Below are positions 31,184-44,568 of a stretch of 64,000 nucleotides of DNA, piece after piece. This DNA is from Clostridia bacterium (GTDB lineage Bacteria; Bacillota; DSM-521; Neomoorellales; SLTJ01). The stretch covers positions 124,001-188,000 of the forward strand of contig SLTJ01000028.1 in the NCBI GenBank assembly GCA_004347685.1, read 5' to 3'. The number at the start of each line of letters is the position of its first letter. Position 1 is the first letter of the stretch. The position numbers were made by a program, and so were the translations under genes. The notes below the pieces were generated by a model, which did not search any database, was not told the origin of the DNA, and saw nothing but the letters and a program-made list of their open reading frames with translations.

Positions 31184-31656
31184 GTTCCGGGTGAGTTATA
31201 TTGGGTTATTGGCCCACCAGTGCCGCTTGCTGGAATGCAGTACCCGCGTGAAGATTTTCCGTGGTCCAATCTCGCGGCAGCCGGATTCGCCGCAGTTGTG
31301 TCGCTACATCCAGGAAGCTACAATCCTGCGCCGCTACAGCGTTTTTTCCGAGAATTTAGAGGACCTGTACCACGGTGGATCGCCTTGCGATGCGGATAGG
31401 GAAAAAGAGACTATTAGACGAGCAGTCCAAGCAACGCTCTCTTCCGTTACATAAGAAAAAAGGTGTTGTAATTCATTGTTGGGGAGGGCGGGGCAGAACC
31501 GGCACGGTCCTGGGTTGTGTTCTGCGTGAACTTGGTTACGAGGTGGACACAGTTATCGCCTATCTGGATTGTGTTCATAAAGTGCAAGGCAAAGAAGGAT
31601 GGCCTGAATCTACCTGGCAAGAGGAGTTGGTCCGCCATTGGAAGCTAGATACCTAA
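31184..31656 (+). pseudogene. Dual-specificity/tyrosine phosphatase pseudogene (two frameshifts)
   Basis: Three frames in succession encode pieces of one protein. Frame one gives YWVIGPPVPLAGMQYPREDF from 31199, running to about 31345. The next piece, ENLEDLYHGGSPCDADRE, is in a second frame, the shift falling at a run of six T (31342-31347). The third, GVVIHCWGGRGRTGTVLGC, is in another frame from about 31440 and holds the cysteine phosphatase loop (HC-x5-R-T). It ends at TAA 31656. Each piece is clearly related to cyanobacterial/Firmicute dual-specificity phosphatase-like proteins, so this is a decayed gene unless sequencing errors explain the shifts. Confidence 0.7.
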
Positions 31657-31657
31657 C

Positions 31658-32005
31658 TACCGGCTAGGGGACCAGAAGAACAGATCCAAGGACATCTTAG
31701 TTCGGGTTTATGATTGCTTCCCTGGCCAGTTTGCCGGTGCCGAAGGCAAGAAAGGTGGCCAATTCTATACACCTGGCTGTATCGTGAAGCTCTTGGTGGA
31801 AATGATCGCGCCTTACAAGGGCCGGGTATATTACCCGTGCTGTGGTTTCGGCGGTATGTTTGGGCAGAGTGAAAGGTTCATTGAAGAGCACGGTGGACTC
31901 AAGGGTGATATTTCTATCTATGGACAGAAAACCAACCTCACCACTTGGGGGCTATGCAAAACGAACCTTGCCATCCGCGGCATCGAGGAGATCTTGGGCA
32001 TATGA
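31658..32005 (+). pseudogene. N6-adenine DNA methyltransferase (HsdM) remnant
   Basis: The frame reads [20 protein letters not shown], then [27 protein letters not shown] and GGMFGQS, a clear piece of a type I HsdM. The SAM-binding motif normally reads DPCCGSGGMF; here Asp and Ser are replaced by Tyr and Phe. The N-terminal bundle, the NPPF catalytic motif and the C-terminus are missing. The stop overlaps the ATG of the SNF2 gene by 4 bp. No proper start is visible. Non-functional as a methyltransferase; a short residual peptide starting at ATG 31784 may still be made. Confidence 0.75.
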
Positions 32006-34884
32006 GCACCGACTACCACGCTAAGTACTTCGCCCATGAGCTCACGAAACACTGCGCCTCCGATAGCATTGAGAAACTCGCCACGGTGCTGGCCGATGCG
32101 CAGGTAGACCTAAATCCGCACCAGGTCGAGGCCGCGCTTTTTGCTTTCCGCAGCCCCTTCTCTAAAGGCGCGATCCTCGCCGATGAGGTTGGCCTGGGCA
32201 AGACCATCGAGGCCGGTCTCTTGCTCGCGCAAAAGTGGGCCGAGCGCAAGCGCCGGTTGCTGGTGATCGTACCGGCCAACCTGCGCAAGCAGTGGGAGCA
32301 GGAACTTGCCGACAAGTTCTACCTGCCTTCGGTGATTCTCGAAGCCCGTAGCTTCAACGAGGCCATCCGGGCCGGTAATCTAAACCCGTTCCAGCAGGAC
32401 GTCATCGTCCTCTGCTCGTATCAATTTGCGCGGGCCAAGGAGCCCTATCTCAGGCAGATAGCATGGGACCTGGTCGTGATCGATGAAGCACACCGACTGC
32501 GTAATGTTTACAAGAATACGAGCAAGATTGCCCTTTCCATCAAGCAGGCAGTGGCCCCGTTTCCCAAGGTGCTGCTCACGGCCACGCCGCTGCAAAACTC
32601 GCTGCTGGAGCTCTACGGGTTGGTGAGCATCATCGACGACTTCACTTTCGGTGATCTGAAGAGCTACCGCACTCGCTTTGCCCGCCTCGGTAACGACGCC
32701 GATTTCACCGAACTAAAGGAGCGCCTCAAGCCCCTCTGCAAGCGCACGCTGCGGCGGCAGGTGCTTGAGTATGTGAAGTACACCAACCGCCACGCGCTGG
32801 TACAGGAGTTCGTCCCCTCCGAAGACGAACAGCGGCTCTATGATCTCGTTTCGGACTACCTCCAGCGACCAACACTCTTCGCCCTTCCGGCCAGCCAGCG
32901 CCAGCTTATGACGTTGATACTGCGTAAACTGCTGGCCTCGTCCACCTACGCCATCTCGGGCACACTCGAAGGCCTCGTACACCGGCTAGAAGCAGCGGAG
33001 GCGGCCGCTGCGGCTGTCCATGCGCTGCCGGAGGAACTGCCGCAGGATTGGGAGTCACTCGACGAACTGGCCGACGAGTGGGAGGACGACGACAGCGGTG
33101 CTGCCAAGCCCGAACGGGCACGCCTTACGCCCGGGCAATTAGCGGAACTGCGGCGGGAAATGGAACAGCTTCGGCAATTCCACGCTCTTGCCAAATCGAT
33201 CATCAAGAACTCCAAGGGCGAGGTGCTGCTGACCGCCCTACGCCGTGGTTTCGCCGCCGCCGCCGAGGCGCAGAAGAGCCAGGGCGCCGCAACGCTTCAG
33301 CAAAAGGCCGTTATCTTTACTGAATCCCGCCGCACGCAGGAGTACCTCTTCCGCGTGCTGGAGCAGACCGAGTTCGCCGGCAAGGTTATGCTTTTCAACG
33401 GGACGAACACCGACCCCACCTCCAGGGCCATCTACCAGCGTTGGCTGGAAAAACACGCCGGCACAGACCGCATCAGCGGCTCAACCACGGCAGACATGCG
33501 GGCTGCGTTGGTGGAACACTTCCGCGATGAAGCGACGATCATGATTGCTACGGAAGCGGCGGCCGAAGGTATTAACTTCCAGTTCTGCAATCTGGTGGTC
33601 AACTATGACCTACCCTGGAACCCGCAGCGTATTGAGCAGCGCATCGGCCGTTGCCATCGTTATGGTCAGAAGTTCGACGTGGTGGTGGTCAACTTTCTCA
33701 ACAAGAACAACGCCGCCGACCAAAGGGTGTACGAGCTGCTCGATCAAAAGTTCCGCCTCTTCAACGGCGTCTTTGGCGCCAGCGACGAGGTGCTGGGCGC
33801 GGTGGAAACGGGCGTAGACTTCGAAAAGCGCATCGCCGCCATCTACCAGCAATGCCGCACGCCGGAGCAGATCCAGTTCGAGTTCGACCAGCTTCAGCGC
33901 GAACTGGAGGCCCAAATCGCCGAGAGCCAGCGTGACGCCCGCGAGAAGCTACTGAACAACTTCGACCAGGAAGTCGTTGAGAAGGTGCGCATCCAGAGCC
34001 ATGACGTGCTCGACCGCTTTAACGAGCAGCTTTGGCGGCTCACCCGCTACCTGCTGGCTGGTTATGCGTACTTCGACGACCACGGGTACAGCTTCACCCT
34101 TCACACCAACCCGTTCCCCGGGGAGGCTATCCGCCCGGGGCCGTACCGCATGGGTAAGGACGTACAAGATGCCAACACCTATCGCGTCGGGCACCCGCTG
34201 GCGCAACGAGTCCTGGAATGGGGCAAGAACGTGGTCACGCCGCCGGCGGAGGTGACATTCGATTACGCCGGCAGTGGCAAGAACATTGCCATTCTGAAAC
34301 CCCTGCGCGGCCGACGCGGCTGGCTGGTGTGCGCCCGCCTGACGGTGAGCGCGCTGGAAACCGAGGACCTGCTTATCTTTGCCGGAATCACCGATGACGG
34401 CATGGCGCTAGAAGAAGCGCAGTGCCGCCGCCTCTTCGACCTTTCGGCGACACAGGGCAGCCCGTGCACGCTGCCCGTAGCGGTTGCCGCCGTTCTCGAC
34501 GAAGCCCGGGCGCGCCGCCGGCAAGCGTTGCTGGAAGAAATGACTGACCGTAACGCTCGGTGGTTCGACACCGAAATGGACAAGCTTGATCGTTGGGCTG
34601 AAGACCGCCGCACCTCCCTCAAGGCTGAGCTGGCGGAGCTGGACGAGGCCCTGAAAGAAGCCAGGAAAGGGGCACGGCTGGCTCCCACGCTCCCGGAGAA
34701 GCTGGAGCGGCAGCGCGCCATTCGCACGCTCGAAGGCAAACGTGAGGAAGCCTGGCGCGCCTACGACGTAGCCAGCCGCGAGATAGACCGGCAGAAAGAC
34801 GCGTTACTCGACGAGATCAGCCATCGCCTGGAACAGCGTATTGAGGAGGAGCAACTCTTTACCTTGCGGTGGGCGTTGGTTTGA
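32002..34884 (+). CDS. SNF2-family helicase-like ATPase with C-terminal coiled coil
   Basis: A 960-residue protein starting at ATG 32002, overlapping the HsdM remnant. N-terminal RecA domain: Walker A DEVGLGKT at about 61-68, VIDEAH (Walker B) near 158, TATPLQNS near 193. C-terminal RecA domain: [11 protein letters not shown] near 436 and the motif V/VI block [12 protein letters not shown] to [10 protein letters not shown] at about 517-555. Residues about 830-950 are charged and helical, probably a coiled coil. It should translocate on double-stranded DNA. Such ATPases occur beside methyltransferases in restriction and DISARM-like systems. Head of the intact defence block; composition resembles that of Res. 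Confidence 0.9.
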
Positions 34885-34931
34885 CGACGCGATAACGCTA
34901 CATGAGGGAAACAGAAAAGAAGGTGTACATA

Positions 34932-37900
34932 ATGATTCACAACAGCCTAATCACCGAGAATCAATTAAATGAATGGGTGCGTGGCAACGCCCAGCAAGCT
35001 CAGGGTGTGATTGTTGAGCTTGTCTGGCGTCTGGTAGCGGCGTCGTCCCCCAAACCCAAAGATCGACGCTTCCCGCTTGGTGACAGCATCACACAACCCG
35101 GGCCCGATGGATTCTTGCATACGGACTTCGGATTTGACCCGTTCGTGCCGGATGGGATATCATTCTGGGAAATCGGTACCGGTGATGCTAGGGCCAAAGC
35201 GACATCCGACTACGGGGACCTAACACACGCAACACCTGAAGCGGTAAGACGCAAATCCACATTCGTCTTCGTCACGCCATTATCTGGAAGAAGGGATTGG
35301 CCTTACACATGGAAAGAGGACGCGCAAGCCAGATGGTTGGAGGAGCGGCGCCAGCGAAACGAGTGGCAAGACGTTCGTGTTATCGACGGATCAAAGCTGA
35401 TCGATTGGCTGCATTGCTTTCCTGCTGTTGAACAATGGCTCGCCGTCAAGATGGGCATCCCGTCTCAGCAAGTACAGACCCCGGAGCAGCGTTGGGCTGA
35501 GTTGAGAACCATCGGTGATCCGCCACCTCTCACCCCGCATGTGTTTCTCGCGAACCGTGACGCAGCGTGCGCGAAACTGAATGAGGTGTTTTCTAGGACG
35601 ATACTTCAGCTAAAGATTGATACGCATTTCCCTCGCCAAGTAGCGGACTTCGTCGCTGCTTATGTGGCAACCATGGACGAAGACACCAAGGTCGATGCCA
35701 TCGGTCGCTGTCTCATCATATCGAGTGCCGAAGGCTGGAATGCGATAACGACCCTTCGTGAGGCACATGTTTTGGTTGCAGATTTCGACCTGGATGACGC
35801 TGACTCGGCAGGAACGAGACTCCTCGAAAAAGCCCGTAGGGCAGGTCATGCGGTCATCTTCGCAGGGATGCCCGGCGGTATACCGCACCCGAATCGGGTC
35901 TCCCTCCCAAGTCCGAAGAGTTATCAGATCAAGGAGGCTCTGGAGAAGGCGGGCTACAAGGAGGAACGTGCCCGCATTCTTGCGCAGAAGAGCGATGGTA
36001 ACTTGAGTTCTTTGCTCAGGTGCCTCCAAAACCTCTCATTGATGCCGGAGTGGGCCCAAGGAACAGACGCAGCGGAACTTGCGATTGCAGAGCTTCTGGG
36101 CGCATGGAGGGAACATTCTGAGGCCGACAAAGCAGTTGTGGAGAAACTCTCGGGAAATCCCTATGGGGAGTGGCTCGGAAAGATGCGTGAAATTGCGCTC
36201 CGTCCGGGCACTCCCCTGGTTCAGCGGGACGGTGCGTGGAAAGTTGTTGCGCGCTACGAGGGATGGTATGCGCTTGGACCGAGGATATTTGACGAGCATC
36301 TGGATCGGCTGAAAGAAGTCGCCGTCAGTGTCCTGCGCGAGCGGGATCCGCAGTTCGAGTTGTCCCCTGATGAGCGATACGCGGCCAGTATTCACGGTAA
36401 GGTTCTAACCCATTCACGCTTGCTGCGAAACGGTTTGGCGGAGAGTTTAGCCCTCCTTGGCAGTCATCCCAAAGCGCTTGCATCGTGCTCCTTCGGCAAG
36501 GCTGAGGCGACTGCCGTTCTTGCGGTGCGGGAGGTCCTGGCTGGCGCAGACTGGGTGCTTTGGGCCAGTCTGAACGACCTCTTGCCATTGCTGGCTGAGG
36601 CTGCTCCTGGGGAGTTCCTTGACGCCGTGGAGAACGCATTGAATAGCGATCCCTGCCCCTTCGACACGGTCTTTGCGCAAGAGGGAGCTGGGATTTGGGG
36701 TAGCAACTACATGACTGGTCTACTCTGGGCGCTAGAAACGCTGGCCTGGGATGCTGAGTATCTCACCCGTACGGTCGTTATCCTCGGCGAACTGGCCGCG
36801 AGGGACCCCGGCGGGAACTGGGCCAATCGGCCAGCCAATTCTCTTTCAACAATTCTATTGCCCTGGTTGCCGCAGACTTGTGCGCCAGTACCAAAGAGGC
36901 GGGCCGCTGTGGCGACTCTACTGAATGAGCTCCCGGACGTTGCTTGGAAACTGCTGCTAGCTCTCCTGCCCAGCTCTCATCAGGTATCTTCGGGCTCGTG
37001 CAAGCCGGTATGGAGGGAGATGATTACCGACGATTGGTCGAGAGGTGTAACGCAGCGAGAGTATTGGGAACAGATAGCCGCTTATGCGGAATTGGCGATC
37101 GGTGCAGCAAAACAAGATCTTTCGAGGCTTGCTGAGCTCATTGACCGCCTGGATGATCTTCCGCCTCCCGTACGTGATCAACTTCTCGCTTACCTGCGTT
37201 CGGACACGGTCGTTTCTATGCCGCAAGCAGACCGGCTCCGGTTGTGGACCGAGCTCGTCGATCTGGTTTCAAAGCACAGAAGATTCGCGGATGCCGAATG
37301 GGCCATGAAGCCGGAGGTAGTGGATGAGATCGCTGCGGTCGCCGAATGCCTGGCACCTGATGCGCCAATTTACCGTCACCAGCGGCTCTTCAGTGAGCGT
37401 GATTTCGATCTATTTGAGGAAAAGGGGAATTATGAGGAACAGCGCAAAAAGCTCGAAGAACGACGGCAAAAGGCCGCCAATGAGGTTTTTGCGGCTGGGG
37501 GTGTGGAAGCGGTTCTGGAATTTGCCCAGGCAGTCGAAACGCCCTGGCGCGTAGGCGTTACCTTCAGTATGATAGCATCGAATGATGCTCAGGGAAAGAT
37601 ACTTCCGGCGTTACTGGAGTCGGAAACCAAGTCTCTTGCGCAGTTCGCGGGAGGGTTTGTCCGGGGGATGTTTCGGGGGCGGGGGTGGCAATGGGTTGAC
37701 AGCATCGACACGTCTCAGTGGACACCGTCGCAAAAAGGGCAGCTTCTGGCTTATCTCCCGTTTACCCCTGACACTTGGAAACGAGTTGCTCGGCTCCTGG
37801 AAGAGGACGAGTCGCCATATTGGTCCAAAACCAACGCGAACCCCTATGAAGCCGAGGAGGGTCTTGAAAGGGCTGTTGATTGCCTGGTCCAATATGGCCG

Positions 37901-38741
37901 GCCGCATGAAGCGATTAGATGTCTTGAACACTTAAGACACACCAAACGGCCCTTGGATAGTCAGCAAGCCGTCCGTGTGCTTCAAGCAGTGCTTCATTCC
38001 TCAGAAGATGCTCATGCCATGGATGTGCACGCCATTGTCGAGGTTATTAAGGCGCTGCAAGATGACTCGGGCACAAACCCCGATGACCTTTTTCAAATTG
38101 AATGGGCGTTTCTACCCCTTCTCGATCGACACCACGGAGCGGCCCCGAGGCTATTAGAGCAGCGGATGGCCGACGATCCCGCTTTCTTTTGTGAGGTCAT
38201 CCGCACTGTGTTTCGGTCCAAGAAGGAGAAGCACCCTGTTGAAGAACCCACTGAGCAACAGAAAAACATCGCGACGAACGCTTACCGTCTGCTTAGCGAG
38301 TGGAGGACGCCTCCCGGTAGCCAGAAAGATGGGACGTTCAACGGCGCCGCACTGACTGCTTGGTTGGAGGAGGTCAAAGCCGCCTGTGTGGAATCCGGCC
38401 ATTTGGAGGTCGCGCTCACCATGGTTGGTCGTGTCCTCATCTATACCCCGCCTGATCCCGACGGCCTTTGGTTGCATCATTCGGCAGCAGCGGCGCTGAA
38501 TGCCAAAGACGCTAAGGATATGCGGGACGGTTTTCGAACCGAGCTGTTCAACTCACGTGGTGTTCATTGGGTTGATCCAGAGGGTCGAGAAGAGCGGAAG
38601 CTGGCTGAAAAGTATCGGACACAAGCCGAACAGGTCGAGGCCCGCGGATACCATCGTTTGGCCAGTTCCCTAAAAAAGTTGGCCGCCTCCTATGAGCGCG
38701 GCGCTGAACGGCAGGCGTCCGGAGACCCCTTTGATGATTAA
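34932..38741 (+). CDS. 1269-residue protein with PD-(D/E)XK-like N-terminus and large helical body
   Basis: ATG 34932 has AAGGTG 7 nt upstream; ATG 34902 has none. Residues 1-180 look like a Mrr-type nuclease: Glu29 in the first helix, PDG (Asp59 or Asp74), WEIGTG with Glu80, Lys89 in KATSDYGD, then FVFVTPLSGR and KLIDWLHCFPAVEQWL. Residues about 200-400 resemble a STAND-like NTPase module, but I see no Walker A. The rest, to 1269, appears as helical repeats, perhaps a sensor. There is no membrane segment. Gap 47 bp after the SNF2 gene and 87 bp before mod, same strand. GC and codon use are lower than in the flanking genes, suggesting a different origin. Not matched to a named family. Confidence 0.75.
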   Translation: MIHNSLITENQLNEWVRGNAQQAQGVIVELVWRLVAASSPKPKDRRFPLGDSITQPGPDGFLHTDFGFDPFVPDGISFWEIGTGDARAKATSDYGDLTHATPEAVRRKSTFVFVTPLSGRRDWPYTWKEDAQARWLEERRQRNEWQDVRVIDGSKLIDWLHCFPAVEQWLAVKMGIPSQQVQTPEQRWAELRTIGDPPPLTPHVFLANRDAACAKLNEVFSRTILQLKIDTHFPRQVADFVAAYVATMDEDTKVDAIGRCLIISSAEGWNAITTLREAHVLVADFDLDDADSAGTRLLEKARRAGHAVIFAGMPGGIPHPNRVSLPSPKSYQIKEALEKAGYKEERARILAQKSDGNLSSLLRCLQNLSLMPEWAQGTDAAELAIAELLGAWREHSEADKAVVEKLSGNPYGEWLGKMREIALRPGTPLVQRDGAWKVVARYEGWYALGPRIFDEHLDRLKEVAVSVLRERDPQFELSPDERYAASIHGKVLTHSRLLRNGLAESLALLGSHPKALASCSFGKAEATAVLAVREVLAGADWVLWASLNDLLPLLAEAAPGEFLDAVENALNSDPCPFDTVFAQEGAGIWGSNYMTGLLWALETLAWDAEYLTRTVVILGELAARDPGGNWANRPANSLSTILLPWLPQTCAPVPKRRAAVATLLNELPDVAWKLLLALLPSSHQVSSGSCKPVWREMITDDWSRGVTQREYWEQIAAYAELAIGAAKQDLSRLAELIDRLDDLPPPVRDQLLAYLRSDTVVSMPQADRLRLWTELVDLVSKHRRFADAEWAMKPEVVDEIAAVAECLAPDAPIYRHQRLFSERDFDLFEEKGNYEEQRKKLEERRQKAANEVFAAGGVEAVLEFAQAVETPWRVGVTFSMIASNDAQGKILPALLESETKSLAQFAGGFVRGMFRGRGWQWVDSIDTSQWTPSQKGQLLAYLPFTPDTWKRVARLLEEDESPYWSKTNANPYEAEEGLERAVDCLVQYGRPHEAIRCLEHLRHTKRPLDSQQAVRVLQAVLHSSEDAHAMDVHAIVEVIKALQDDSGTNPDDLFQIEWAFLPLLDRHHGAAPRLLEQRMADDPAFFCEVIRTVFRSKKEKHPVEEPTEQQKNIATNAYRLLSEWRTPPGSQKDGTFNGAALTAWLEEVKAACVESGHLEVALTMVGRVLIYTPPDPDGLWLHHSAAAALNAKDAKDMRDGFRTELFNSRGVHWVDPEGREERKLAEKYRTQAEQVEARGYHRLASSLKKLAASYERGAERQASGDPFDD

Positions 38742-38828
38742 CGCTCTTGATGCTAGACCCTCGACGAATCCGTTATTCAAGCCCCCATTAGGCGGTGGGG
38801 CCTGACATGAGATGGAGGCGACGCCTAG

Positions 38829-40775
38829 ATGACTGACCAACCTGAAAAACTCGACCTGCGTTCTTTCGATATCGCCGAAGACAAGCGGCAGGAACTGTTG
38901 CGCCTCTTCCCGGAGGTTCGCACGGAGGGCGGCAAGATCGACTTCGAGCGCTTGAGGCTTGCCCTGGGCGAGACGGTGGACGTGGGTAAGGAGCGCTACG
39001 GCATGAACTGGCCCGGCAAGGCCGACTGTTTCAAGACCATCCAGGTGCCGAGCCTGGGGACCCTGCGGCCATGCCCGGAGGAGAGCGTCAATTTCGACAC
39101 AACCGAGAACCTGATAATCGAGGGCGACAACCTGGAGGTGCTTAAGCTATTACAAAAATCCTATCTGGGCAAAGTGAAGATGATATACATCGATCCGCCC
39201 TACAACACAGGCAACGACTTCATCTACCCCGACAACTATACCGAGTCCTTGCAGACCTACCTGGAATACACCGGGCAGGTGGACGGCAATGGGAAGAAGT
39301 TCAGTACCAATACAGACACCGACGGGCGCTTCCATTCCAAGTGGCTGAACATGATGTACCCGCGGCTGTACCTGGCGAGGAATTTGCTGCGGGAGGATGG
39401 GGCCATTTTCGTTAGTCTTGATGATACCGAATCATCACAACTGCACTTTTTGATGAATGAGATCTTTGGTGAAGAAAACTTTGTTGGTGTTTTCCCTTGG
39501 CGCTCTCGTACCGCCAAGGCAGATGTCCCGTTTGGTGTATCAAAGGACGTTGAATGGGTCATCTCCTATGCAAAACCGGGTTTTTTCGCTGGGCGTATGG
39601 GTGAACGGAAATACTACAAGTCAGAGGACTATAAAGACAGATGGCGGCTGTCAGACCTTACGACAAACAAGACAGCAGAACAACGTCCGAATTCATTTTT
39701 CGTAATGGTCAACCCTAAAACGCAAGAACAATACCCATCTGATCCAACTCGCACGTGGGCCGTTACGCAAGATACATTCTTCGAATACTATCAAAAAGGG
39801 AAAATAGTTTTCCCAGGTGATTATCCCTTCTTAAATATCACCAAACCATATTTTCGTGTTTTTGAAAGTGAAGATAAAGAAAAAGCACTGTTAAAACACG
39901 GGACTGAAGAAGTGCGCATGTCTATTTCCACATACTTGCCCGAGAAGGAAGTTGGCAGAACCGAAGACGGTTCCAAAGAAATCAGGAGCTTGTTTGGAAG
40001 CCAAGTCTTTTCTTATCCAAAGCCGGTTGGGTTACTCCAATTCTTTATCAAAAATACAAGCCAAAAGGACGACATCATCCTTGACTTTTTCGCCGGATCC
40101 GGCACTACTGCTCAAGCCGTCCTCGAGTTGAACAAGCAAGACGGCGGTAATCGTAAGTTTATCCTGGTGCAGCTTCCCGAGCAGCTTGACCCCAATGACA
40201 ACGATCAGAAGACCGCGTCGGACTTCTGCGACTCCATTGGTAAGCCGCGGAATATCGCGGAGATCACCAAGGAGCGCGTCCGCCGCGTCATTAAGAAGCT
40301 GAACGACGAGGATGCCGCCAGGGAGCCTAGCCTGTTCGACGAAAACAGGCCAGAGCAGGACCGCGGGTTCCGCGTCTTCAAACTGGCCGAGTCCAACTTC
40401 AAACCCTGGAACGCCGGGGTGCCGCACGACGAAAAGGTGCTGGCGCAACAGCTCGAACTGCACATCGACCACATCCGCCAGGGGCGGACGCAAGAGGACA
40501 TCCTCTACGAGATCCTGCTTAAGAGTGGCTTCCCGCTCACCGCGCCGGTCGAGAGACTCACACTGGCAGGCAAGACCGTCTACAGCGTGGCGGAGGGCGC
40601 GCTCTTCATCTGCCTGGAGCGGCAGTTGACGCTGGAGCTTATCCGCGCCATGGCTGAGAGGAGACCCGAGCGGGTGGTCTGCCTGGACGAGGGCTTTGCC
40701 GGCAACGACCAGCTCAAGGCCAACGCCGTTCAGGTCTTCAAGACCAAGGGCGTCACCAGCTTCAAGACGGTGTGA
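38829..40775 (+). CDS. Type III restriction-modification methyltransferase (Mod)
   Basis: A 648-residue beta-class DNA methyltransferase, with catalytic DPPYNTG at about residue 122 preceding the SAM motif LDFFAGSGTT at about 417, the order expected for Mod. Between them lies the target-recognition region. The product probably methylates N6 of adenine in an asymmetric site and forms the Mod2Res complex with the downstream nuclease. The recognition region (about 39400-40090) is clearly AT-richer than both ends of the gene, a sign of past specificity exchange. ATG 38829 follows GGAGGCGACGCC, an acceptable site. Confidence 0.93.
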   Translation: MTDQPEKLDLRSFDIAEDKRQELLRLFPEVRTEGGKIDFERLRLALGETVDVGKERYGMNWPGKADCFKTIQVPSLGTLRPCPEESVNFDTTENLIIEGDNLEVLKLLQKSYLGKVKMIYIDPPYNTGNDFIYPDNYTESLQTYLEYTGQVDGNGKKFSTNTDTDGRFHSKWLNMMYPRLYLARNLLREDGAIFVSLDDTESSQLHFLMNEIFGEENFVGVFPWRSRTAKADVPFGVSKDVEWVISYAKPGFFAGRMGERKYYKSEDYKDRWRLSDLTTNKTAEQRPNSFFVMVNPKTQEQYPSDPTRTWAVTQDTFFEYYQKGKIVFPGDYPFLNITKPYFRVFESEDKEKALLKHGTEEVRMSISTYLPEKEVGRTEDGSKEIRSLFGSQVFSYPKPVGLLQFFIKNTSQKDDIILDFFAGSGTTAQAVLELNKQDGGNRKFILVQLPEQLDPNDNDQKTASDFCDSIGKPRNIAEITKERVRRVIKKLNDEDAAREPSLFDENRPEQDRGFRVFKLAESNFKPWNAGVPHDEKVLAQQLELHIDHIRQGRTQEDILYEILLKSGFPLTAPVERLTLAGKTVYSVAEGALFICLERQLTLELIRAMAERRPERVVCLDEGFAGNDQLKANAVQVFKTKGVTSFKTV

Positions 40776-40783
40776 GGGGGGCA

Positions 40784-41593
40784 ATGATTATGCGCAAAGA
40801 TATGCAGCCTTGGGCAGGCGACATTCTTCTTTATGCAACTGAGGACGGAGCTGCGCGGATCGAGGTTTTTTTTCAAGACGAAACATTTTGGTTGACCATG
40901 AACCGCATGGCCGATTTGTTTGGCGCCACTAAGCAGGCAATTAGTTATCATCTTCAGAGGATATATGAAACTAACGAGTTACAGCGGGAGGCAACTGTCA
41001 AAGAAATTTTGACAGTTCAAGTAGAAGGTGGCCGCGAAGTATCCCGTAAACTTGAGTATTACAACCTGGACGCTATCATCGCCGCCAAGGATGCCGAGAT
41101 CACCCAAACCTTCTTCAAGACGGTGCAGAACAAATTGCATTGGGCCATTACCGGCCAAACGGCGGCGGAAATCATCGCCGGGCGGGCTGGCGCGGACAAG
41201 GCAAACATGGGATTGACCACGTGGAAGAATGCACCCCACGGTAAGATACTGAAGTCCGATGTGTCCATTGCCAAGAACTACCTGTCAGAACCGGAGATCA
41301 AGGAGCTCGAGCGCATCGTCACCATGTTTTTGGACTACGCTGAAAATCAGGCGGCGCGGCAGATTCCAATGCGCATGGAGGACTGGGTTAACAAACTCGA
41401 TGGCTTTTTGCAGTTCAACGAGTACGACATTCTGACCAATGCCGGTAAGGTTTCCCACGAAGTGGCCCGGCGGCTGGCTGAGGACGAATACGCGAAGTTT
41501 CGTGTAATCCAGGACCACGATTATGAGAGTGATTTCGAACGAGCAGCGAAGAAAATTACTGCGAAAATCCGGCGGAAGAAGGAAGATAGTTGA
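40784..41593 (+). CDS. RhuM-family protein, internally shortened
   Basis: It starts at ATG 40784 or 40790 just after GAGGGGGG, giving about 269 residues. The N-terminus (WLTMNRMADLFGATKQAISYH) looks like a DNA-binding segment, and the C-terminal half (NMGLTTWKNA, DVSIAKNYLSEPEI, MRMEDWVNKLDGFL, ILTNAGKVSHEVA) is typical RhuM. After YYNLDAII the familiar VGYRVNS...FRIWA block and what follows are absent; the frame is kept, so about 60-70 residues seem to be deleted compared with members I recall. RhuM proteins are common beside restriction systems, with no established activity. Only 8 bp follow mod, and the stop overlaps res. Confidence 0.8.
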   Translation: MIMRKDMQPWAGDILLYATEDGAARIEVFFQDETFWLTMNRMADLFGATKQAISYHLQRIYETNELQREATVKEILTVQVEGGREVSRKLEYYNLDAIIAAKDAEITQTFFKTVQNKLHWAITGQTAAEIIAGRAGADKANMGLTTWKNAPHGKILKSDVSIAKNYLSEPEIKELERIVTMFLDYAENQAARQIPMRMEDWVNKLDGFLQFNEYDILTNAGKVSHEVARRLAEDEYAKFRVIQDHDYESDFERAAKKITAKIRRKKEDS

Positions 41594-44568
41594 AGATTCA
41601 ATTCGACGCCAACCAGCAGTTCCAACTCGACGCCGTCGCTGCCGTCACCGACCTCTTCGCGGGCCAACCGCAGGGCGCACCGGAGTACGCCGTCATCAAC
41701 CTGGGCGGGTGGGGCGGGATGTTCGCGGGGCAGGACCGCACCGAGCTGGGCGTGGGTAACCGGCTGCTCTTGGACGAAGAAAAGCTGCGGCAAAACACCC
41801 GCATGGTACAGCTACGTAACGACATCGAGGTGGCCGACCCGGCCGCGCCCCTGGAGGCATGGGAGCTGTTCGACACCCCGGCCAACCAGGCGCGGCGCTG
41901 CCCGCATTTTTCGGTGGAGATGGAGACCGGCACGGGCAAGACCTACGTCTACCTGCGCACCATATTTGAGCTGTCGCAGCGCTATGGCTTCTCCAAGTTC
42001 GTCATTGTAGTGCCAAGCGTAGCCATCCGCGAGGGCGTGCTCAAGAACATCGAGATCACCGCCGGGCATTTCCGTGCCCTCTATAACAACATGCCCTTCG
42101 AGCACTTCGTCTACGACGCCAAAAAGGTCAACCGCCTGCGGCAATTCGCCATCAGCAACATGCTGCAGGTTATGGTCATCAACATCGACGCCTTCCGCAA
42201 GAACTTCACCGGCACCGAGGAGGAGCAGAAAAGCAACGTCATCTACAAGGAGAGCGACAGGCTCTCCGGTCGCCAGCCCATCGAGTTCGTGCAGGCGGCG
42301 CGGCCCATCGTCATCATTGACGAGCCGCAAAGCGTGGACTCCACGGATAAGTCCCAGGAGGCCATCAAGGCGCTCAACCCGCTGTGCACCCTGCGCTACT
42401 CCGCCACCCACCGCAACCAGTACAACCTGGTCTACCGGCTCGACCCGGTGCGCGCCTTCGAGCTCAAGCTGGTGAAGCAGATCGTGGTGGCCAGCGCCGC
42501 GGCCGAGGGCGCGGCCAATGACGCCTTCGTGCGCGTAGAACAGATCGACTACAAGAAGGGAATCAAGGCCAAGCTGCGCATCCACGTGCAGACGGCCGAC
42601 GGGCCGAAGGAGAAGTCGGTTACGGTCAAGCATGGCGCCGACCTTTATGCGCTCTCCAACGAGCGGGCCAACTACCGTGATGGCTTCGAGGTGGCCGAGA
42701 TCAACGCCGAACCTGGCAGCGAGTTCATCCGCTTCTCCAGCGGCCGTACCCTGCGACTGGGTGAGGAGATGGGCGGCCTGCGCGAGGACTTATGGCGCGC
42801 CCAGATCAAGCACACCATTAAGCGGCATCTGGAAAAGGAGCTGCAAGTACAGGGGCGCGGCATTAAAGTGCTGTCGCTTTTCTTCATCGACCGCGTGGCC
42901 AACTACCGCGACTACGACGAAACGGGCCGGCCGGTGCCGGGTAAGTTCGCCCAAGCCTTCGAGGAGGAACTGGCGGCGCTAGCCAGGGAAGAACGTTACC
43001 GGGACCTGGCGTGGCTCCGGGCGCCGGTGGAGAGGCTGCACAACGGCTACTTCGCCCAGGATAAGAAAGGGGTGCTCAAGGACACCCGCGGCGACACCCA
43101 GGCCGACGACGAGGTCTACAACCTGATCATGAAGGAGAAGGAGCGCCTGCTCTCCCTTGACGAGCCACTACGCTTCATCTTCAGCCACTCCGCGCTGCGC
43201 GAGGGCTGGGACAACCCCAACGTCTTCCAGGTCTGCACGCTCAACGAAACGAAAAGCGCGGTCAAGAAGCGGCAAGAAATCGGCCGCGGGCTGCGCCTGC
43301 CGGTGGACCAGGATGGCCGGCGGGTTTTTGATGAATCGGTGAATAAGCTCTACGTCATGGCTAACGAGAGCTACGAGGACTTTGCCCGTACTATGCAAAC
43401 CGAGTACGAGGAAGACTGCGGCGTCACCTTTGGCAAGGTACCTATTACGGCCATTGCCAAACTGGCGCGGGTGGTCGACGGTGCAGATAAACCCATCGGG
43501 CGTCCGGCTGCCGAGGCGATTCGTGATGCGTTGGTGTCACAGGGGATGCTTGATACGGATGGGCGGATACAGCCCGCCTTCGATCCCAGGCGCAAGGACT
43601 TCAAGTTGGAACTGCCGGAGGCGCAGCGCGACCTCACACCCGCCGTGATCGACCTGCTTTCCAGCTACCAGATCCAGCGACATATCCGCCGCGAACGCGA
43701 CGACGGCCCCAACCGGCTCAAGAAGGAAGTCACCCTCAGTCCCGAATTCCAGGCCCTTTGGGAGCGCATCAAGCCCAAGACTACCTACCGGGTGGAATTC
43801 GAGACAGAGACCCTGGTGCGCCATGCCGTGGAAGCGATCAAGCGCATGGAGCATATTGAGAGGCCACGGATTCGCGTAGCCGCCGGGCAGCTCGGTATCG
43901 AAAAGGGCGGGATCACCACTGCCGCCGTAAGCGTGGCGGAGGAACGGGTGGAGTACGGCAGCCGTCCCGTTCCCGATATTCTCGCCTACCTCCAGAACGA
44001 AACCGAGCTGACCCGTTCAACGCTGGTACGCATCCTCAAGGAATCCGGTCGGCTAGCGGAGTTTTTCAACAACCCGCAGCGGTTCATGGACACGGTAGCG
44101 TCCATTCTCAAATGCGAGCTGCACCGGCTGCTGGTGGACGGCATCAAATACGAGCGGATTGATGGTATCGGGGCCGCGGCGGAATGGGAGATGCTGCTCT
44201 TCAAGAACGAAGAGCTGATCAACTACCTTACAGCCCTGCAGGTGAATAAGTCGGTTTATGAGTATATAGTGTATGACTCGGAAGTGGAGCGCGAGTTCGC
44301 CCGGCGACTGGACGAGCGGGAGGACATCAAGCTCTTCGTGAAGCTGCCCGGCTGGTTCAAAATCGATACACCAGTCGGCGAGTACAATCCCGACTGGGCC
44401 ATCGTCAAGCACGACGGCCAGGCGATCTATCTGGTGCGCGAGACCAAGGGTACCCGCGACTTCCTAAAACTGCGTACCAGCGAGGCCGACAAGGTACGCT
44501 GCGGAAAAAAGCACTTCGAGGCGCTGGGCGTGCCGTTTGCGGTGGCGGTGACCGCGGAGGAAGTGTGA
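41590..44568 (+). CDS. Type III restriction enzyme (Res): SF2 helicase with C-terminal nuclease
   Basis: TTG 41590 overlaps the RhuM stop by 4 bp (TTGA), with GGAAGATAG as a possible ribosome binding site; 992 residues. Helicase motifs: METGTGKT at about 110-117, IIDEPQ near 242, RYSATH near 262, FSHSALREGWDNPNV near 529 and EIGRGLRLP near 559. A C-terminal PD-(D/E)XK nuclease has NPDWAIV near 932 and YLVRETKG near 946. Res uses ATP to signal along DNA and cuts near two convergent unmethylated sites, with Mod providing specificity. All catalytic motifs look intact. Confidence 0.92.
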   Translation: MKIQFDANQQFQLDAVAAVTDLFAGQPQGAPEYAVINLGGWGGMFAGQDRTELGVGNRLLLDEEKLRQNTRMVQLRNDIEVADPAAPLEAWELFDTPANQARRCPHFSVEMETGTGKTYVYLRTIFELSQRYGFSKFVIVVPSVAIREGVLKNIEITAGHFRALYNNMPFEHFVYDAKKVNRLRQFAISNMLQVMVINIDAFRKNFTGTEEEQKSNVIYKESDRLSGRQPIEFVQAARPIVIIDEPQSVDSTDKSQEAIKALNPLCTLRYSATHRNQYNLVYRLDPVRAFELKLVKQIVVASAAAEGAANDAFVRVEQIDYKKGIKAKLRIHVQTADGPKEKSVTVKHGADLYALSNERANYRDGFEVAEINAEPGSEFIRFSSGRTLRLGEEMGGLREDLWRAQIKHTIKRHLEKELQVQGRGIKVLSLFFIDRVANYRDYDETGRPVPGKFAQAFEEELAALAREERYRDLAWLRAPVERLHNGYFAQDKKGVLKDTRGDTQADDEVYNLIMKEKERLLSLDEPLRFIFSHSALREGWDNPNVFQVCTLNETKSAVKKRQEIGRGLRLPVDQDGRRVFDESVNKLYVMANESYEDFARTMQTEYEEDCGVTFGKVPITAIAKLARVVDGADKPIGRPAAEAIRDALVSQGMLDTDGRIQPAFDPRRKDFKLELPEAQRDLTPAVIDLLSSYQIQRHIRRERDDGPNRLKKEVTLSPEFQALWERIKPKTTYRVEFETETLVRHAVEAIKRMEHIERPRIRVAAGQLGIEKGGITTAAVSVAEERVEYGSRPVPDILAYLQNETELTRSTLVRILKESGRLAEFFNNPQRFMDTVASILKCELHRLLVDGIKYERIDGIGAAAEWEMLLFKNEELINYLTALQVNKSVYEYIVYDSEVEREFARRLDEREDIKLFVKLPGWFKIDTPVGEYNPDWAIVKHDGQAIYLVRETKGTRDFLKLRTSEADKVRCGKKHFEALGVPFAVAVTAEEV

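What the first reader, a model, noticed from the sequence alone, without database searches (positions are those of the whole stretch)
32002..44568. Candidate new defence system: SNF2 ATPase + large PD-(D/E)XK-like protein + type III Mod/RhuM/Res
Five intact same-strand genes form one block: SNF2 ATPase, 1269-residue protein with nuclease-like N-terminus, Mod, RhuM and Res. Gaps are 47, 87, 8 and -4 bp. A classical type III system needs only Mod and Res. The SNF2 ATPase and the large protein resemble parts of other antiviral systems (DISARM-type ATPases, STAND-like nuclease proteins), but DISARM core genes drmA/B/C are absent, as are BREX genes. One reading is that Mod marks self while two independent effectors (Res, and SNF2 plus nuclease) act on foreign DNA. 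The large gene also has lower GC, which fits modular assembly.
Basis: partly seen in the sequence, partly recalled or inferred. Interest (0 to 1): 0.8.

Follow-up and report, generated by a model that had tools for sequence, protein, structure and literature searches.

The report
SNF2 motor wedded to type III restriction
A bacterial DNA-cutting defence operon of the type III kind carries a conserved extra DNA motor (SNF2) that travels with it in many bacteria, while the large nuclease-like gene noticed beside it is only a passenger; how the motor helps is untested.

Summary
The five intact same-strand genes are real, but they are not one five-gene system. The core is SNF2 + Mod + Res. Of SNF2-family loci with at least 7.5 kb downstream, 46 of 52 have Mod and Res on the same strand within 12 kb, against 0 of 18 for distant SNF2 proteins. 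The SNF2 family is well conserved (median identity 45%) and pairs with three very different Mod-Res types. SNF2-linked Res of the window's type form their own clade. The 1269-residue protein and RhuM are cargo. A relative in the same phylum has SNF2-Mod-Res without either. None of 40 other loci of the large protein has SNF2 or Res in the fetched DNA, and 1 of 67 SNF2 loci (this one) has the large protein. The two gaps hold varied, often defence-type genes elsewhere. The SNF2 is RapA/DrmD-like; one DISARM locus carries Mod-Res directly after DrmD. I infer a three-component restriction system in which an SNF2 translocase works with Mod-Res. Ten searches of open papers found no description of it. 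Function is untested.

The parts
31685..31998 (+). remnant of a type I methyltransferase gene (HsdM, N6_Mtase profile positions 2-110, then TGA) whose stop overlaps the SNF2 start; a homologous stretch precedes SNF2 in G129
   Evidence: PF02384 100.7 bits; alignment with L043 from 31716 on
32002..34884 (+). SNF2/RapA-like ATPase, core gene; motor motifs intact
   Evidence: PF00176 110.6 bits, Helicase_C 76.2 bits; nearest named family DISARM_DrmD_b 672 bits, below its cut-off of 950; model closest to RapA
34866..34873 (.). GCGGTGGG, left border repeat of the inserted large-protein cassette
   Evidence: read from sequence, comparison with L043
34932..38741 (+). large protein (1269 aa), cargo: N-terminal alpha/beta domain, AAA+/STAND fold without Walker A, long C-terminal part; possible distant relative of PD-Lambda-4_A
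38791..38810 (+). left-behind 3' end of the ancestral SNF2 gene (18 of 20 bases as in L043), containing the right border repeat GCGGTGGG (38792-38799)
38829..40775 (+). type III Mod methyltransferase, core gene
   Evidence: PADLOC MTase_III 673.9 bits, PF01555 112 bits
39432..40070 (+). exchanged middle of Mod (putative target recognition region), GC 0.427; no blastn alignment to L043 although both flanks align at 80-90%
40784..41593 (+). RhuM-family protein, cargo in the Mod-Res slot (about 810 bp against 8 bp in L043)
   Evidence: PF13310 215.5 bits
41590..44568 (+). type III Res (helicase plus C-terminal endonuclease), core gene
   Evidence: PADLOC REase_III 1026.6 bits, PF19778 128.1 bits

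Best explanation
The locus is a mobile three-component restriction system, SNF2-Mod-Res, carrying two passenger genes. Mod methylates host DNA at its site and gives the complex its specificity; Res is the ATP-driven endonuclease that cuts unmethylated invading DNA (general knowledge of type III enzymes, inferred here from family and motifs). The SNF2 protein is most likely a double-strand DNA translocase that works with the Mod-Res pair of its own operon, for example by clearing or remodelling proteins on phage DNA so that Res can reach a second site, or by moving the complex along DNA. The gaps SNF2-Mod and Mod-Res are plug-in slots where unrelated, often defence-type genes sit; here they hold an Avs-like protein and RhuM. 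Shown here: the conserved linkage, exchange of Mod-Res types under one SNF2 family, a separate clade of SNF2-linked Res of the window's type, the cargo insertions, intact motor and nuclease motifs. Inferred: antiviral function, physical contact, and the step at which SNF2 acts.
For: Linkage: 46 of 52 SNF2-family loci with >=7.5 kb downstream have Mod and Res on the same strand within 12 kb; the viral-contig part, from which no profile was built, gives 27 of 31; at 90% clustering 42 of 47; controls (distant SNF2 from the same scan) 0 of 18 (Fisher p 5.8e-12). Without three DrmD-branch loci (L148, whose SNF2 is a full-length DrmD; L147, a DISARM locus; L145, which joins L148 in the tree) it is 44 of 49, or 40 of 44 clusters. 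Order can vary (Mod-Res-SNF2 in L047 and L136). One SNF2 family (median 45%, minimum 30% identity in 42 loci) serves three Mod-Res types; Res are 18% identical at the median; the SNF2 tree needs 5 type changes where 2 is the minimum. Type I Res linked to SNF2 form one side of a branch with SH-aLRT 100 against 21 and then 15 SNF2-less rows. Distances correlate: SNF2-Res r 0.43, SNF2-Mod 0.34, p 0.0002. G129 has the operon without the large gene and RhuM. Motifs intact. SNF2 model best matches RapA (6bog, E 8.1e-26, 1063 alignment columns). L148 has DrmMII, DrmD, Mod, Res and DrmA in a row.
Against: Mod-Res does not need SNF2: in two searches of 299 genomes of the phylum (same n and same tallies, taken as one draw), 6 genomes have the SNF2 and 38 a window-type Res at E <= 1e-100; only G000 and G129 have both, and in G129 the SNF2 is broken while Mod and Res are open. 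Six of 52 loci lack the full set on one strand (L036, where Mod is present and the fetched DNA ends; L051; L139, opposite strand; L143; L146, broken SNF2; L147). One of all 27 control loci, L181 (under 7.5 kb downstream, so outside the 18), does hold Mod and Res, on the other strand and beside a second distant SNF2. Labels follow phylogeny, so related loci are not independent; the p values ignore this. RapA resemblance also fits a role at RNA polymerase. SNF2-less Res rows came from one phylum plus four plasmids, and L136 is a long branch. No experiment, complex prediction or phage test was possible.
Confidence: 0.7

Rival explanations
1. SNF2 is a regulator of the operon, not a restriction component: like RapA it acts at RNA polymerase and times expression of Res after Mod when the operon enters a new host.
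For: Best structural match is RapA; SNF2 is the first of the three genes in nearly all complete loci, and a small HTH gene ending at the SNF2 start was found by profile in 10 of 62 loci (more were seen by eye).
Against: Its nearest PADLOC profiles are defence motors (DrmD, BrxHI/BrxHII, HmaA, DpdE, ZorD); SNF2 follows Mod-Res in L047 and L136; SNF2-linked type I Res is a separate lineage, which regulation alone would not call for.
Confidence: 0.15
2. Plain type III restriction operon; SNF2 is one more independent passenger gene that settled next to Mod-Res.
For: 36 of 38 genomes with a window-type Res lack the SNF2 at E <= 1e-100; SNF2 is broken beside intact Mod-Res in G129.
Against: Passengers vary from locus to locus (47 cargo frames with only seven related pairs) while SNF2 stays; 46 of 52 SNF2 loci have Mod-Res; SNF2-linked type I Res is one clade.
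Confidence: 0.12
3. One reading: Mod marks self and two effectors act, Res and an SNF2-plus-large-nuclease pair.
For: Gene order and short gaps in this window only.
Against: No SNF2 or Res in the fetched DNA (7-24 kb each) of 40 of 40 other loci of the large protein, and the large protein in only 1 of 67 SNF2 loci; insertion scar of the large gene in the SNF2 3' end; G129 lacks it.
Confidence: 0.03

Closest known systems
Type III restriction-modification (EcoP15I-like Mod2Res1; abstract of PMC4490356 seen)
   Same: Mod and Res with the motifs looked for; Mod-Res order; middle of Mod exchanged between relatives
   Different: a conserved SNF2 ATPase as further operon member; three Mod-Res types share one SNF2 family
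DISARM (DrmD SNF2 helicase)
   Same: DrmD is the nearest named SNF2 (PADLOC DrmD 664 bits, NCBIfam DrmD_b 672 bits); a DISARM locus, L148, carries Mod-Res directly after DrmD
   Different: below the DrmD_b cut-off of 950 bits; no MZB/DUF1998 domain in the whole genome; a type III Mod instead of Drm methylases
BREX-related / Hma systems (SNF2 helicase + N6-MTase + DUF499 ATPase), PMC12839542 (passages and section 28 read)
   Same: three-part layout of SNF2-type helicase, N6 methyltransferase and a third ATP-using partner
   Different: third partner is a type III Res endonuclease; no DUF499 protein among the 15 window proteins scanned; HmaA profile only 172 bits
Avs (antiviral STAND) proteins and PD-Lambda-4, for the cargo protein only
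   Same: AAA+/STAND fold behind an N-terminal domain; Foldseek first hit Avs3, Avs4 at Z 8.4; PADLOC PD-Lambda-4_A matches 7 of 12 members, best 8.8e-6
   Different: no Walker A motif seen in the 12 aligned members; about 10% identity to Avs; PD-Lambda-4_A match of the window protein itself only E 0.0087

Membership tests
Type III restriction-modification | Mod methyltransferase with DPPY and F.GSG motifs | tested here: met
   MTase_III 673.9 bits; DPPY at 122, FAGSG at 421
Type III restriction-modification | Res with SF2 helicase and C-terminal PD-(D/E)XK endonuclease | tested here: met
   REase_III 1026.6 bits, PF19778; TGTGKT, DEPQ, PDW...ETK
Type III restriction-modification | cleavage needs ATP and unmethylated asymmetric sites | not testable with these tools
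   biochemistry
DISARM | core genes drmA and drmB | tested here: not met
   no MZB/DUF1998 in the own genome (the same search is positive in 8 of 14 control genomes); no such domain among the 15 window proteins scanned by Pfam
DISARM | SNF2 reaching the DrmD model cut-off | tested here: not met
   672 bits against 950
BREX / BREX-related (Hma) | BrxC/PglZ, or a DUF499 ATPase, with the methyltransferase and helicase | tested here: not met
   none among the 15 window proteins scanned by Pfam; the rest of the genome was not searched for them
SNF2-Mod-Res (proposed here) | family SNF2 with Mod and Res within 12 kb on the same strand | tested here: met
   window, one of the 46 of 52 loci
Avs/STAND (large cargo protein) | active STAND NTPase with Walker A | tested here: not met
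   no GxxxxGK[ST] at the expected place in alignment A3, judged by eye
Avs/STAND (large cargo protein) | N-terminal nuclease or other effector domain | tested here: inconclusive
   invariant D, E and K residues; no nuclease family match; the structure comparison hardly tested residues 1-177
PD-Lambda-4_A (large cargo protein) | significant full-length match to the PADLOC model | tested here: inconclusive
   weak and short: E 0.0087 in the window protein over about 70 residues; 7 of 12 family members match, best 8.8e-6

The most novel reading that the evidence does not exclude
SNF2-Mod-Res is a distinct, widespread class of restriction system in which a RapA/DrmD-like double-strand DNA motor is the constant part and different Mod-Res pairs are exchangeable specificity-and-cutting modules. 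It is a missing link between type III restriction and DISARM (which in L148 holds Mod-Res next to DrmD), and its two gene gaps are standing docking sites for other defence genes.
Probability: 0.4. Interest if true: 0.8.

Novelty: new variant of a known kind. Interest (0 to 1): 0.6.

Why it matters
Type III restriction is described as a two-protein (Mod, Res) system. A conserved SNF2 partner, seen here with both genes in Pseudomonadota, Deinococcota and Planctomycetota plasmids, in the window's phylum and in viral contigs (and with Mod alone in the fetched part of a Bacteroidota plasmid), would add a motor whose role can be tested directly, would give DISARM's DrmD a simpler relative to study, and would give a sequence rule (the SNF2-Mod and Mod-Res gaps) for finding new defence genes.

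Tried and rejected
Five-gene system: rejected. Membership in DISARM: rejected. Sequence relatives of the large protein among solved structures: profile search gave only a de novo designed ATPase at E 0.0087 and a repressor at E 0.96. Insertion site between housekeeping genes: in six relatives fetched, FBPase is conserved but the window's downstream genes were not found near it, so no empty site was found there. Phage records: one partial match each for SNF2 and for the large protein. HTH partner: only 10 of 62 loci by profile, and none found in the window, so not counted as core. Fold lists: in the second look at Foldseek's hits no nuclease fold was listed for residues 1-177, but that part was barely tested. 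Literature: all 10 searches (listings seen, passages read in ten papers, of PMC12839542 also its outline and section 28) found no paper describing SNF2 with type III Mod-Res as a system. One genome paper, PMC12757443 (one passage seen), lists a Res, a Mod and an SNF2 helicase among the genes of one Cronobacter element without linking them. The library holds open-licence PMC papers only.

Rows dropped before counts: four SNF2 fragments (L149, L151, L153, L154; scores 302-516, neither core nor control), and 15 of 67 core and 9 of 27 control loci with under 7.5 kb downstream; of the 9, L181 holds Mod and Res. Broken-SNF2 loci L043, L052 and L146 were kept in the counts. Plasmid loci: 17 of 51 matching records were fetched; 33 of the 51 are Salmonella, Klebsiella, Providencia or Escherichia records. 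The distance test and SNF2 tree used 42 loci, one per 90% cluster with long enough frames. The profiles were built from the window and annotated plasmid loci, which are also among the loci counted. Of 47 cargo frames, 20 were scanned by Pfam.
Full report
What is there. The window holds five intact same-strand genes: SNF2 ATPase (32002-34884), a 1269-residue protein (34932-38741), Mod (38829-40775), RhuM (40784-41593) and Res (41590-44568). Family searches name SNF2 as closest to DISARM DrmD (672 bits, cut-off 950), Mod and Res as type III enzymes, RhuM as PF13310, and give only a weak match for the large protein (PD-Lambda-4_A, E 0.0087). The motifs looked for in SNF2, Mod and Res are present. 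The flanking genes scanned are housekeeping or ordinary genes: carAB, argG, argH and FBPase upstream; ComF-like, GGDEF, YetF, radical SAM and glycosyltransferase genes downstream. No further defence gene was found among those ten, so a wider island does not explain the grouping.

The large protein is a passenger. Its relatives occur on plasmids, in genomes and in viral contigs. None of 40 such loci has a family SNF2 or Res in the fetched DNA (7-24 kb each), one has a weak Mod-like hit (41.6 bits), and among 67 SNF2 loci only the window has the large protein. Even the relative at 83% identity (L005, an 11.8 kb contig) shows no SNF2. Genome G129 of the same phylum has a locus at 88-92% DNA identity in its longer aligned parts with SNF2, Mod and Res but neither the large gene nor RhuM. 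Comparison shows the scar: the last bases of the ancestral SNF2 gene survive downstream of the large gene (38791-38810, 18 of 20 bases as in G129), and GCGGTGGG stands at both borders (34866-34873 and 38792-38799), its only two places between 34000 and 39000. RhuM replaces 8 bp between Mod and Res by about 810 bp. The middle of Mod was exchanged too: 39432-40070 gives no blastn alignment to G129 and has GC 0.427.

What the passenger is. A model of residues 1-510 is good (pLDDT 86.8). Residues 178-369 have the AAA+/STAND fold (Z up to 9.8), with Avs3 the first Foldseek hit (E 2.8e-5) and Avs4 matched over residues 6-375 at Z 8.4 with high rmsd. No Walker A motif is seen in 12 aligned members. 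PADLOC's PD-Lambda-4_A matches 7 of 12 members weakly (best 8.8e-6). Some members carry an N-terminal HTH (Pfam HTH_3 in 4 of 12). It is most likely a stand-alone, Avs-like sensor-effector with a degenerate NTPase (inference); whether its N-terminal domain is a nuclease was not settled.

SNF2, Mod and Res belong together. Annotated plasmid neighbours first suggested it. I then built profiles for the three proteins from the window and annotated plasmid loci and scored 67 SNF2-family loci: the window, 5 genomes of the phylum, 17 of 51 plasmid records, and 44 viral-contig loci found with an SNF2 alignment alone. Of 52 loci with at least 7.5 kb downstream, 46 have Mod and Res on the same strand within 12 kb (47 on any strand); the viral part alone gives 27 of 31; one per 90% cluster gives 42 of 47. 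Distant SNF2 proteins from the same scan give 0 of 18 (Fisher p 5.8e-12, which ignores relatedness). Exceptions: L036 (Mod present, fetched DNA ends), L051, L143, L146 (broken SNF2), L139 (Mod-Res on the other strand) and L147 (a DISARM locus with a Mod). Without the DrmD-branch loci L145, L147 and L148 the counts are 44 of 49 loci and 40 of 44 clusters. One control locus outside the 18, L181, has Mod and Res on the other strand beside a second distant SNF2, so other SNF2 families may also do this.

The linkage is one-sided. In the phylum draw of 299 genomes, 6 have the SNF2 and 38 a window-type Res, with only G000 and G129 in both lists. The other four SNF2 genomes carry a Mod and a Res frame of other types next to it (one of them, L042, with a short Res frame). 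Over 42 loci the SNF2 family is conserved (median pairwise identity 45%, minimum 30%), while its partners fall into three types (9, 21 and 12 loci) and Res are 18% identical at the median. On the SNF2 tree the types need 5 changes, 2 being the minimum, so Mod-Res types appear to have been exchanged under SNF2 (a quick tree). Within type I, the SNF2-linked Res form one side of a branch (SH-aLRT 100) against 21 SNF2-less Res of the phylum, and again in a second tree with 15 SNF2-less rows, four of them from plasmids. The sampling of SNF2-less rows is uneven and one row (L136) is a long branch. Of the four SNF2-less plasmid rows, L211 and L214 do carry a different, distantly SNF2-like helicase.

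Cargo slots. Among 52 core loci with all three genes, the SNF2-Mod gap is 250 bp or more in 20 and the Mod-Res gap in 11; some of these reflect broken core genes or insertion sequences. 47 cargo frames were listed, the window's two included, with only seven related pairs, one of them transposases. Of the 20 scanned by Pfam, 13 have a match: GmrSD/DUF262 (three), AIPR, SIR2 with HerA, PLD/NgoFVII, Abi_2, Abi_C, AAA_21 with DUF4276, and two SMC-like ATPases; seven have none. The AAA-DUF4276 pair sits in the Mod-Res slot in L045 and in the SNF2-Mod slot in L046.

Relation to known systems. The SNF2 model (pLDDT 78.4, pTM 0.63) is closest to RapA. PADLOC's DrmD is its nearest named family. One viral-contig locus, L148, has DrmMII, a full-length DrmD (1541 bits), Mod, Res and DrmA in a row, so the SNF2-Mod-Res neighbourhood also exists inside DISARM. 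The window's genome has no MZB/DUF1998 domain, so it is not DISARM. BREX-related (Hma) systems have the same three-part plan with a DUF499 ATPase instead of Res (PMC12839542, passages and section 28 read). The ten literature searches gave no description of SNF2-Mod-Res; this covers open-licence PMC papers only.

Mechanism. Shown: conserved linkage, intact enzymes, module exchange, cargo slots. Inferred: Mod marks self, Res cuts unmarked DNA, and SNF2, a double-strand DNA translocase by family, assists restriction on the same DNA. Against a strict requirement: Mod-Res mostly occurs without this SNF2 in the phylum, and in G129 SNF2 is broken while Mod and Res are open. This fits SNF2 as an aid to restriction rather than a safety component. 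A regulatory role, as RapA has at RNA polymerase, remains the main rival. Confidence that the three genes are one functional unit is about 0.8; in the specific translocase role about 0.35; 0.70 is given to the explanation as a whole (lowered slightly on recheck because of L181 and the unsampled SNF2-less rows).

Noticed in passing
L148:8626-20168: DISARM locus (DrmMII, DrmD, DrmA) with a type III Mod-Res pair between DrmD and DrmA; whether L145 is the same was not checked.
   Followed up: partly
L211 and L214 (plasmids of Methanomethylovorans and Paraburkholderia): Another helicase (in L214 1081 aa, PADLOC best C3a139 HKD+Snf2) plus a DUF4391 protein upstream of Mod-Res: a possible second helicase-associated type III layout.
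   Followed up: partly
L181:1-12718: A distant SNF2 protein followed by Mod and Res on the minus strand, next to a second SNF2 gene on the plus strand; other SNF2 families may pair with Mod-Res too.
   Followed up: no
window 31200-31655: Remains of a protein-phosphatase-like gene (HCWGGRGRTG, recalled as a phosphatase-loop-type motif) apparently split over two frames between FBPase and the HsdM remnant.
   Followed up: no
L051:11986-15687: Thioclava plasmid SNF2 of about 1233 aa whose match to the window SNF2 ends at residue 844 and which has no Mod-Res nearby: possible fusion or replaced partner.
   Followed up: no
NZ_CP041435.1 and NZ_AP027899.1, about 67-77 kb: HTH, SNF2, DUF262/DUF1524, Mod and Res annotated together in 2 of 5426 complete E. 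coli genomes; the related L052 record lies near dinD.
   Followed up: partly
L083-L106: Relatives of the large protein in 24 IMG/VR viral contigs, so the family may travel on prophages.
   Followed up: no
L014, L016, L018 (annotated), L009 and L022 (by eye in the alignment): Relatives of the large protein with an N-terminal HTH domain, suggesting self-regulation.
   Followed up: no
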